A stretch of 64,000 nt of DNA from Reinekea marinisedimentorum (lineage in GTDB: Bacteria > Pseudomonadota > Gammaproteobacteria > Pseudomonadales > Natronospirillaceae). Positions within the stretch are counted from its first letter, which is position 1, and every line of letters begins with the position of its first letter. A program made the position numbers and the translations under genes. The stretch spans positions 1 through 64,000 of the forward strand of contig NZ_SLZR01000001.1 in NCBI RefSeq assembly GCF_004341165.1. Reading direction: 5' to 3'. The notes beneath the pieces are model-generated. The model was not told where the DNA came from, did no database searches, and saw nothing but the letters and a program-made list of their open reading frames with translations. This document shows positions 34,254-35,550 of the stretch, piece after piece.

Positions 34254-35063
34254 ATGAATAATCTTTACGACCAGGCTAAGCACTGCTTTTTAACCGCCGA
34301 CCCGGCTGAAAAGGTTGCCGCCACCTACGAGGCCTGCAGCCTGTGGGACGGCAACAAACTGGAATGGCAGGACGGTGCCGCCCCCCTGTTGCTGAACGAG
34401 CCGGGCCGTCTGGATAAGCCTGAAGTGGTGATGCCGCGCGATTTAGGCAAACGCAAAATGACCAAAGAGGAAGGCCGGGCATCGCTGATTCATTCACTCG
34501 CCCACATCGAGCTGACCGCGGTCAACCTCGCGTGGGATTCCGTCTACCGCTACCGCGACATGCCACTGGAGTACTATCAGGACTGGGTGCAGTGCGCCAA
34601 AGAAGAAGCCAGCCATTTCATCCTGTTGCGCGACCGACTGCGCGAGATGGGCTACGACTACGGCAGCTTCCCGGTACATAACGAGCTGTGGAAAATGGCG
34701 GTAAGCACTGCCGATGATCTGATGGACCGCATGGGCATTGTGCACCGGGCCTTCGAGGCACGGGCACTCGACGTCATCCCCGGCACCCTGAAACGCTTTG
34801 AAAGCATGAACGATACCGCCATGACCAAAGCGCTGACCATCATCTGCAACGAAGAGGTCGGTCATGTCAGCTCCGGCACCCGCTGGTTCCGCTACCGCTG
34901 CGAACAGCAACAGCTCGACCCCGACACCACCTTCTTCAGCCTGCTGGAAAAGTACATGAAAAAGCCACCGTCCGGCCCGTTTAACAATGAGGCCCGACGG
35001 AAATGTGGCTTTACTGAGGCGGAGCTTGCGTATTTGGAGCGGAATGATGGGCGGAAGACGTGA
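34254..35063 (+). CDS. DUF455 ferritin-like protein
   Basis: A 269-aa protein of the DUF455 family, a ferritin-like di-iron helical bundle related to MiaE. Carboxylate/His ligands appear in pairs: LIHSLAHIELTAVNLAWD, CAKEEASHFILLRDRL and IICNEEVGHVSSGTRWF. The start at 34254 is the family N-terminus. Its last three codons and its stop codon (AAG ACG TGA) run directly, and in phase, into a 7-bp repeat array, so the array supplies the stop codon. The reaction catalysed is unknown. Confidence 0.87.
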   Translation: MNNLYDQAKHCFLTADPAEKVAATYEACSLWDGNKLEWQDGAAPLLLNEPGRLDKPEVVMPRDLGKRKMTKEEGRASLIHSLAHIELTAVNLAWDSVYRYRDMPLEYYQDWVQCAKEEASHFILLRDRLREMGYDYGSFPVHNELWKMAVSTADDLMDRMGIVHRAFEARALDVIPGTLKRFESMNDTAMTKALTIICNEEVGHVSSGTRWFRYRCEQQQLDPDTTFFSLLEKYMKKPPSGPFNNEARRKCGFTEAELAYLERNDGRKT

Positions 35064-35233
35064 GAGGCTAGATGCTAGATGCTAGATGCTAGATGCTAGA
35101 TGCTAGATGCTAGATGCTAGATGCTAGATGCTAGATGCTAGATGCTAGATGCTAGATGCTAGATGCTAGATGCTAGATGCTAGATGCTAAAGGCTAGCAT
35201 CTCGTATCTCGCATCTCATACCTCAAATCTAGC
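35061..35233. repeat. Heptamer array A with inverted tail
   Basis: The array starts at the DUF455 stop codon with TGAGAGG and continues with 17 exact copies of CTAGATG (35068-35186). It then passes through CTAAAGG into about five units in the opposite orientation (ATCTCGT-like, 35199-35233). A CTAGATG unit can pair with the opposite unit at six of seven positions, so the transcript could form a long hairpin. Confidence 0.93.
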
Positions 35234-35242
35234 AACATCCCG

Positions 35243-35348
35243 AATCAGAGCTACCAGCCGGGACTTTCTGCGCAGGTGCCGAGGGGTGTCTGAGCGAAGC
35301 GAGTTCCCGAACACCTAAGCAGGAAGTACCGGTTGGTGGCGCGTGGCG
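35243..35348. repeat. Structured core element, copy 1
   Basis: A conserved element of about 106 nt. Its ends form a 12-bp stem (GCTACCAGCCGG with CCGGTTGGTGGC, including G-U pairs). A second 9-bp stem lies inside it (ACTTTCTGC/GCAGGAAGT), then AGGTG/CACCT, and an apical GCGAAGC hairpin. The same element occurs at 48443-48552 and 48588-48697. It is embedded between heptamer arrays. Confidence 0.85.
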
Positions 35349-35355
35349 TGGATTG

Positions 35356-35550
35356 TGAGACGTTAGATGTAAGACGTTAGATGTTAGATGTTAGATGTTA
35401 GATGTTAGATGTTAGATGTTAGATGTTAGATGTGAGACGTGAGATGCTAGATGCTAGATGCTAGATGCTAGATGCTAGATGCTAGATGCTAGATGCTAGT
35501 ATCTCGTATCTCGCATCTCGTATCTCGTATCTCGTATCTCATATCTAGAA
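35356..35550. repeat. Heptamer array B with inverted tail
   Basis: In-phase units: TGAGACG, TTAGATG, TAAGACG, eight TTAGATG, TGAGACG, TGAGATG and seven CTAGATG (to 35495), then seven or so reversed units (ATCTCGT/ATCTCGC/ATCTCAT). The consensus is YDAGAYG. Homogeneous runs of the same variant suggest recent slippage expansion. Confidence 0.93.

What the first reader, a model, noticed from the sequence alone, without database searches (positions are those of the whole stretch)
35061..35550. Compound repeat: in-phase 7-bp arrays around a structured core, starting at a stop codon
The sequence shows 17 exact CTAGATG units, reversed units, a structured core of about 106 nt, then about 20 more units and another reversed tail. 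The first unit is TGAGAGG, whose TGA is the stop codon of the DUF455 gene; the codons before it (AAG ACG) are also in phase with the repeat. The units keep the same 7-nt phase through almost the whole block. Forward and reversed units can pair at six of seven positions, so an RNA copy could form very long hairpins. I know of no named element with this form. It may be a 3'-UTR RNA element, a mobile satellite, or a slippage locus.
Basis: partly seen in the sequence, partly recalled or inferred. Interest (0 to 1): 0.85.

Follow-up and report, generated by a model that had tools for sequence, protein, structure and literature searches.

The report
Gene-less heptad-repeat element at stop codon
A block of 7-letter repeats around a folded RNA, sitting on a gene's stop codon, is one of about twenty copies in this genome and appears to be a gene-less relative of small inserts that carry a four-helix-bundle protein gene between inverted 7-letter repeats.

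Summary
The block is real: 17 exact CTAGATG units, 20 further units and a 109-nt hairpin core. The two arrays differ in phase by 1 nt, so "same phase throughout" fails. The genome has 19 clear core copies; BLAST finds none in 56 relatives. On the + strand, G-U cells outnumber C-A cells 92 to 3, so it is probably an RNA.

The explaining lead: both PF05635 ("four helix bundle"/S23) genes of this genome lie between heptads of the same class. This is general: at 61 PF05635 loci, 93 of 122 flanks have 7 as their single best period, against 12 of 366 control windows, with different heptamers in different genomes. An intervening sequence inside 23S rRNA is built likewise. Related Nostocales plasmids show filled and empty sites, one with a clean 5-bp duplication holding the upstream stop codon. 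Gene-less versions exist in another genome and on plasmids.

Best reading: a gene-less, RNA-bearing member of a heptad-armed mobile family related to rRNA intervening sequences. That the four-helix protein moves it is inferred only. No empty site for the block itself was available.

The parts
34254..35063 (+). The protein ends ...LERNDGRKT; the one ortholog found in 6 other genomes of the genus (G002) ends ...LEANDPRAEHNKK
   Evidence: the ATG start is read from the sequence (one search lists an earlier GTG)
35054..35060 (+). GAAGACG, an in-phase near-unit; its last six bases are the last two codons (AAG ACG) of the ORF
35061..35193 (+). Forward heptad array 1: TGAGAGG, 17 x CTAGATG, CTAAAGG
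35194..35234 (-). Reversed units (CATCTCG, CATCTCA and similar) that pair with array 1
35242..35350 (+). Structured RNA core: helix of about 21 bp with inner hairpins; one of 19 clear copies in the genome
35356..35495 (+). Forward heptad array 2: 20 units (TTAGATG, TGAGACG, CTAGATG and others), phase shifted by 1 nt from array 1
35496..35546 (-). Reversed tail that pairs with array 2
35567..35596 (+). Terminator-like hairpin with T run, downstream of the block and before a convergent gene
   Evidence: sequence; read by eye
48361..48442 (+). Second block: forward heptad array beginning with the TGA stop codon of the upstream ORF
48442..48554 (+). Second block, core copy 1
48587..48698 (+). Second block, core copy 2 (tandem, 144-bp period)
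48709..48723 (+). Small GGTCCGGCATCCCGG module between units, seen inside other arrays too

Best explanation
The block is a gene-less, RNA-bearing member of a family of small heptad-armed elements. The family's gene-bearing form is a PF05635 (four-helix-bundle, S23 / 23S rRNA intervening-sequence protein) gene between a forward and an inverted array of like heptamers.

Shown: (1) the core and arrays are dispersed copies, often starting at or just behind stop codons; (2) PF05635 genes in this and many other genomes lie between heptad arrays, the heptamer differing among genomes; (3) on plasmids, gene-bearing inserts are present or absent at the same site, once with a clean 5-bp duplication holding the stop codon; (4) gene-less heptad-armed inserts with hairpin or other cargo occur at ten places in another genome of the order (G125) and on Nostocales plasmids.

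Inferred: the block reached the stop codon of the upstream gene by such an insertion. Most forward units carry a stop codon and the 7-nt period puts it in every frame, so landing there costs little. The block is transcribed into the 3' UTR and folds into three hairpins. Unit number changes by slippage. Most speculative step: the PF05635 protein, a distant relative of the Avd protein of diversity-generating retroelements, acts in trans on the heptad stems, perhaps with the element's RNA as intermediate.
For: Dispersal: 23 BLAST matches to the core in the own genome; 19 clear copies, which are also the sequences the model was built from. 0 of 56 relatives by BLAST, 0 of 6 same-genus genomes by RNA model. 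Three-unit arrays: 272 in the own genome; 36 of 41 searched genomes have none.
Stop codons: 12 of 20 core places have a codirectional upstream ORF, with the first recognised unit 0-54 nt from its stop, 11 of 12 within 27 nt. 10 of 18 core places with two neighbours lie between convergent ORFs, against 72 of 422 intergenic regions; ORFs were called by a simple script.
RNA: 92 G-U against 3 C-A cells; + strand z = -4.4, - strand z = -2.0.
Link to PF05635: 2 of 2 own genes flanked by such arrays. 93 of 122 flanks at 61 loci have 7 as single best lag, 12 of 366 controls; after removing one of each of five near-twin pairs, 83 of 112 flanks, at 50 of 56 loci. 41 of 62 loci have up/downstream complementarity at or above the 95th percentile of swapped pairs. 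10 of 11 plasmid loci.
Own heptamer: (GTCGCAC)3 23 times at 10 places in G125, 0 in 40 others.
Mobility: filled and empty sites; gene-less insert with matches at 93 places in 43 plasmid records, 19 records with a place covering at least 80% of the query.
Avd: PHROG 3206, E = 2.5e-4, for one of the two own proteins; no match for the other.
Against: No empty site or second strain was available for the window's block, so its insertion is inferred. The arrays on both sides of most cores seen are direct, whereas PF05635 inserts mostly have inverted arms; the block itself is array-hairpin, core, array-hairpin. Nothing but the shared heptamer class links the core to PF05635. (GCTTGAR)3 was absent from G015, whose own PF05635 locus has GCTTGAA units. 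Six of 61 loci show no flank with 7 as single best lag; two of these have best lag 8. Plasmid locus L246 has none, and L250 has direct arrays on both sides. The target duplication is clean at one site only; at the second, the right-hand copy may be a heptad remnant and differs among alleles; at the third it is short or imperfect and at two others not seen. Transposases were not searched for. Covariation in the core is modest.
Confidence: 0.66

Rival explanations
1. Heptad simple-sequence repeats only: slippage amplifies any 7-nt seed, and stop-codon sites are simply the places where arrays are tolerated. The core and the four-helix gene are passengers.
For: Arrays without core or gene exist. 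Unit number varies by whole heptads (L251 vs L254). Heptad repeats are reported as over-represented in many bacteria (PMC4692102 and PMC4679880, passages).
Against: Does not explain inverted matching arrays on the two sides of one gene family, a genome-specific heptamer shared by distant places, or filled/empty sites.
Confidence: 0.13
2. A classical MITE moved by an ordinary IS transposase; the heptads are its terminal inverted repeats and the PF05635 gene is an occasional passenger.
For: Short inverted arms, one clean 5-bp target duplication, and many gene-less copies.
Against: Arms are tandem heptads of variable number rather than fixed ends; heptamers differ among genomes while the gene family stays the same. 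No IS with such ends was looked for, so this is not excluded.
Confidence: 0.22
3. A host-selected 3'-UTR RNA (mRNA stabiliser, terminator aid or RNase III site) whose copies spread because they regulate the upstream genes.
For: + strand RNA conservation, position between stop codon and terminator-like hairpin in this block, strong folding.
Against: Copies also lie in divergent spacers (5 of 18 core places with two neighbours). The core is absent from the 6 same-genus genomes searched, so no old conserved function is evident.
Confidence: 0.15

Closest known systems
23S rRNA intervening sequences (IVS) with the S23p / PF05635 ORF, e.g. Coxiella burnetii (PMC4990558, passages seen)
   Same: An ORF between complementary arms forming a stem; [quoted passage not shown] a mobile origin already proposed in print. 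One such insert found here twice in G361, inside a gene matching the bacterial LSU rRNA model, has heptad arms.
   Different: The window block is not in rRNA, has no ORF, carries a 109-nt RNA core and sits at a protein gene's stop codon.
GGGAATC heptads of Xanthomonas and GGGGA(T/C)T of Nostoc (PMC4692102, part of the abstract and passages seen)
   Same: Tandem heptamers; 70 and 75 inverted pairs in two Xanthomonas genomes; many within 50 bp of stop codons or overlapping them; mostly transcribed.
   Different: Treated there as G-quadruplex formers; 'four helix' and 'S23' do not occur in that text. Here the heptads are not G-runs and surround a folded core.
TAACTGA direct repeats of Beggiatoaceae, Cyanobacteria and Bacteroidetes (PMC4679880, abstract and passages seen)
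   Same: Heptamer arrays, 13 sets overlapping stop codons of upstream genes; mobility considered.
   Different: Mostly before start codons; read there as translational control; no 'four helix' or 'S23' in the text; no structured core described in what I saw.
Heptad stems in the P6b loop of the Nostoc tRNA-Leu group I intron (PMC4476775, abstract and passages seen)
   Same: Two 7-nt repeat classes, each forming a stem in an RNA; one class has replaced the other; unit number varies.
   Different: Inside an intron, no gene; no link to PF05635 in the passages seen.
REP / BIME and MITE elements (recalled)
   Same: Short, dispersed, intergenic, hairpin-forming, no gene.
   Different: REPs go with RAYT transposases and MITEs with an IS; neither was searched for here. 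Heptad arms of variable number are not typical.

Membership tests
PF05635 / 23S rRNA intervening-sequence insert | Contains a PF05635 ORF | tested here: not met
   No ORF of 80 aa or more inside the block; the genome's two PF05635 matches lie elsewhere
PF05635 / 23S rRNA intervening-sequence insert | Heptad arms of the heptamer class found at the genome's PF05635 genes | tested here: met
   C1:133992-134019 and 134397-134417, on either side of the gene, match YDAGAYG; the C20 copy has more degenerate units
PF05635 / 23S rRNA intervening-sequence insert | Arms inverted relative to each other, giving one outer stem | tested here: inconclusive
   Each array pairs with its own reversed tail, giving two stems beside the core; many other core copies have direct arrays on both sides
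PF05635 / 23S rRNA intervening-sequence insert | Lies in 23S rRNA | tested here: not met
   Block lies behind a protein-coding ORF; no Rfam match in the window
Mobile element with target duplication | Empty site and target-site duplication | not testable with these tools
   No close strain held. For PF05635 inserts on Nostocales plasmids: empty sites seen, duplication clean at one site
Heptanucleotide simple-sequence repeat | Tandem 7-nt units beyond chance | tested here: met
Known structured RNA family | Rfam match at gathering score | tested here: not met
   0 in the window; only a sub-threshold Trp_leader match in 10 core loci
REP/BIME with RAYT | Cognate Y1 transposase in the genome | not tested
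   -
MITE of a known IS | An IS with the same ends in the genome | not tested
   -

The most novel reading that the evidence does not exclude
Heptad-armed inserts with a four-helix-bundle (Avd-like) protein and no transposase are one widespread class of mobile element that targets stop codons and RNA loops. The unexplained heptad repeats of many bacteria, rRNA intervening sequences, and gene-less RNA-bearing derivatives such as the window's block are all forms of it. Movement goes through the folded RNA bound by the PF05635 protein, and the heptamer is renewed in concert within each genome.
Probability: 0.3. Interest if true: 0.93.

Novelty: new variant of a known kind. Interest (0 to 1): 0.82.

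Why it matters
Heptad repeats have been noted in bacteria without a settled cause, rRNA intervening sequences have been suspected mobile without a mechanism, and the 'four helix bundle protein' family is annotated without a function. This finding ties the three together and makes the link testable in laboratory strains: each PF05635 gene predicts the heptamer that should be dispersed in its genome. It also adds a structured RNA core found so far in one species. If the protein moves the elements, it would be a new way for DNA to spread while sparing the gene it lands behind.

Tried and rejected
Rfam, gathering and permissive thresholds: nothing relevant. Core pattern in genome contigs and viral contigs: 0 (exact patterns; records of the own genome may be left out of those collections). 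Core by BLAST in plasmids and phages: 0. PF05635 in viral contigs by peptide patterns: no relative. A reverse-transcriptase link: two RVT_1 proteins in the genome; I saw no heptad array by eye within 1.5 kb of either; left open. Core on the minus strand: as DNA no better than shuffles, as RNA z = -2.0, weaker than the plus strand's -4.4. Concerted change of heptamers at one fixed locus: six PF05635 loci lie before an ahcY-like gene (recognised by motif, name recalled), but their proteins fall in a 15-leaf clade with nine other loci, so vertical descent versus repeated insertion is undecided. Nine paper searches listed no paper that, by title and start of abstract, joins heptad arrays outside rRNA to the four-helix gene; the library lacks most subscription journals, so absence from print is not claimed. 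PMC8700078 (two passages) only lists four-helix genes among strain-specific genes.

bears out one clean duplication and shows that the nrdA stop TAA is kept, with the array starting one base after it.

Rows dropped before counts: 69 PF05635 loci held (not all matches were fetched; 20 more were taken without regard to flanks), 7 dropped (L115 no ORF; L116-L119 weak match or wrong ORF; L134 and L168 truncated), giving 62; L138 too short, giving 61. Five pairs are alike at 88% or more over about 3 kb, so P values are not for independent data; without one of each pair 50 of 56 loci remain positive. Of 12 plasmid loci fetched around PF05635 genes, L241, a close twin of L240, was left out. One search found a period start at only 33 loci and had no control.

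Full report
Observation. The block at 35061-35550 is real and far beyond chance. It consists of TGAGAGG plus 17 exact CTAGATG, a reversed stretch, a folded core at 35242-35350, 20 further units at 35356-35495 and a reversed tail to about 35546. The first unit's TGA is the stop codon of the upstream ORF. The two arrays are one nucleotide out of phase with each other, so the claim of one phase throughout fails. As RNA the block folds into an array hairpin, the core, and a second array hairpin, z = -10.4. The window holds a second block at 48361-48720 with two tandem cores, starting on another gene's stop codon.

Copies. In the own genome (4.23 Mb, 62 contigs) BLAST with the core gave 23 matches. 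I aligned 19 of them and built a covariance model. Its search of the own genome gave 32 rows at E <= 0.01: the 19 copies it was built from, 7 diverged hairpins (six in C7:156154-157002, one in C24:9253-9359) and 6 antisense echoes of clear copies. The core was found in 0 of 56 relatives by BLAST, in 0 of 6 same-genus genomes by the model, and in no genome, viral, plasmid or phage record by the searches; the pattern scans need exact matches. Three-unit YDAGAYG arrays number 272 in the own genome, 6 in G125, 3 in G007, 1 each in G005 and G099, and 0 in the other 36 of 41; the backwards control gave 3, all in G140.

The core is probably an RNA of the + strand. Over 19 copies and 33 pairs, 95.8% of cells pair, and 5 pairs show changes on both sides against a shuffled mean of 2.3, reached by 11 of 500 shuffles; covariation is thus modest. 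The strand signal is stronger: 92 G-U cells against 3 C-A cells. In columns whose commonest pair is Watson-Crick, my count is 36 against 3, in 14 and 3 columns; cells are not independent. As RNA the + strand has z = -4.4 with 0 of 200 shuffles as good, the - strand z = -2.0 with 5 of 200.

Stop codons. One search took 20 core places: the 19 copies lie at 18 places, plus two partial cores, L021 and L022. ORFs were called by a simple script. In 12 of 20 the upstream ORF runs in the core's direction; there the first recognised unit starts 0-54 nt from the stop codon, 11 of 12 within 27 nt. Of 18 places with two neighbours, 10 lie between convergent ORFs, 5 between divergent ones, 3 between codirectional ones. 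In the 781,729 bases examined, 72 of 422 intergenic regions of 40 nt or more were convergent. The upstream protein of the window's block ends in GRKT where the one ortholog found in the genus runs on to PRAEHNKK, as expected if the array replaced the last codons.

The link that explains the arrays. Both PF05635 matches of the genome are genes flanked by heptads of this class. One lies at C1:134061, with TAAGACGTGAGATGTAAGACGTAAGACG before it and CGTCTTACATCTTACGTCTAGCGTC after it; the other, at C20:25498, has longer and more degenerate arrays. PF05635 is the 23S rRNA intervening-sequence protein family; NCBIfam calls it 'four helix bundle protein'. One of the two proteins has a weak match to the Avd protein of diversity-generating retroelements, the other none.

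Generality. PF05635 occurred in 19 of 145 genomes of the order and 62 of 398 of the phylum at E <= 0.001. I analysed 62 of the 69 loci held. In 41 of 62 the upstream flank matches the reverse complement of the downstream flank at or above the 95th percentile of 250 swapped pairs, and in 10 of 62 above their maximum. Period 7 is the single best of lags 3-13 in 47 of 61 upstream and 46 of 61 downstream flanks, in at least one flank of 55 of 61 loci, and in 12 of 366 control windows from the same loci. Without one of each near-twin pair the figures are 42, 41 and 50 of 56. Heptamers differ: TAGGCAG, GTCGCAC, GTGAGGA, TCAGGAA, GTTAAAA and others. One insert, present in two identical copies in G361, lies inside a gene that matches Rfam's bacterial LSU rRNA (2499 bits), so it is a true 23S intervening sequence, and its arms are heptads. 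In 56 of 62 loci a same-strand open frame of at least 100 codons ends within 400 nt upstream; where a period start was found (33 loci) its median distance from the stop codon was 7 nt, 21 of 33 within -7 to 30 (no control).

Genome-specific heptamers and gene-less forms. (GTCGCAC)3, from one PF05635 locus of G125 (L103), occurs 23 times at 10 places in G125 and in none of 40 other genomes. All ten were read (one cut short by the view): inserts with similar arms, several units forward and, in the nine seen whole, several inverted, around different cargo, REP-like hairpins or other sequence. Against this, (GCTTGAR)3 gave 8 matches in 3 of 41 genomes, none in G015, whose own locus suggested it.

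Filled and empty sites. Of 33 plasmid records with a PF05635 relative, I looked at 11 loci; 10 have heptad flanks. At site 1, Trichormus variabilis 0441 and Scytonema NIES-4073 carry the insert, Nostoc linckia NIES-25 and Aulosira laxa NIES-50 do not. The empty sequence AAAAAGTAATTAAC becomes AAAAAGTAAT-insert-GTAATTAAC, a 5-bp duplication holding the TAA stop codon of the upstream gene, and the two filled copies differ by 14 nt, two heptads. At a second site (L260, L261, L263 against L259) the insert starts right behind the stop codon, TTCTAA in the filled and TTCTAG in the empty copies. TTCTA recurs at the right end in two of three, but it resembles a reversed heptad there, so the duplication is only possible. 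A third site (L247 against L259) lies at an overlapping stop/start with a short or imperfect duplication. At a fourth (nrdA/nrdB, L242 against L262) the array starts one base after the nrdA stop codon, which is kept. A fifth comparison is not clean (L243 against L256, about 50 nt replaced); at that site another plasmid holds a gene-less heptad insert (L257). A gene-less insert also interrupts the four-helix gene of L261; a query with it matched 93 places in 43 plasmid records, 19 records with at least 80% covered. The gene-bearing insert of L251 matches that of L260, at another site, over arms and gene (78%, 419 nt) and not beyond.

Mechanism. Shown: dispersal, RNA-level conservation of the core, shared heptads, filled/empty sites for the gene-bearing form, and gene-less forms elsewhere. 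Inferred: the window's block is such a gene-less form. Not shown: what moves it. Transposases were not searched for. The four-helix protein as helper, and RNA as intermediate, are the bold part. The differing topology (direct arrays around many cores, inverted arms around most genes) is unexplained.

Known work. Heptads at stop codons are in print for Xanthomonas and Nostoc (PMC4692102) and Beggiatoaceae (PMC4679880); the words 'four helix' and 'S23' do not occur in either text. The Coxiella intervening sequence has tandem heptamers before its S23p ORF, and a mobile origin has been proposed (PMC4990558, passages). What I add, as far as nine searches of an open-access library can tell, is the joining of these and the presence/absence evidence. 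I therefore call the block a new variant of a known kind.

Noticed in passing
L086 (G000:C7:156154-156841, minus strand) and G000:C7:156892-157002, C24:9253-9359: Five tandem copies with 144-bp period and two single hairpins share the core's cap (GTGTYTGAG...CGAGTTCYCGAACA, with variations) on quite different stems.
   Followed up: partly
window 48709-48723; G000:C2:3595, 6653, 6823: A small GGTCCGGCATCCCGG-type hairpin module lies between heptads in several arrays.
   Followed up: partly
L169, L171, L175, L177, L233 (G125): Heptad-armed inserts enclose hairpins of the GTAGGTCGGGCTTTAGCCCG and CCCGCGAAAGCGGGGATCC types, which look like common intergenic hairpins elsewhere (recalled).
   Followed up: no
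L244 and L250 (Anabaena sp. 90 and Pseudanabaena galeata plasmids): A four-helix gene lies between cas6 and cas4 in two different cyanobacteria; in L250 the arrays on both sides have the same direction.
   Followed up: no
L133, L146: Two PF05635 loci have flanks with best period 8, not 7.
   Followed up: no
L098, L102, L103, L105, L107, L108: Six PF05635 genes of the order lie before an ahcY-like gene, each with another heptamer.
   Followed up: partly
L097 (G000:C4:158970-159300) and L022: Another repeated sequence (TAGTAGCTCAGACTCGATCTGACA-like) lies next to heptad remnants.
   Followed up: no
window 48676-48773 (L010:1736-1833): Sub-threshold Trp_leader match over the end of the second block and the terminator-like hairpin; probably chance.
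   Followed up: no
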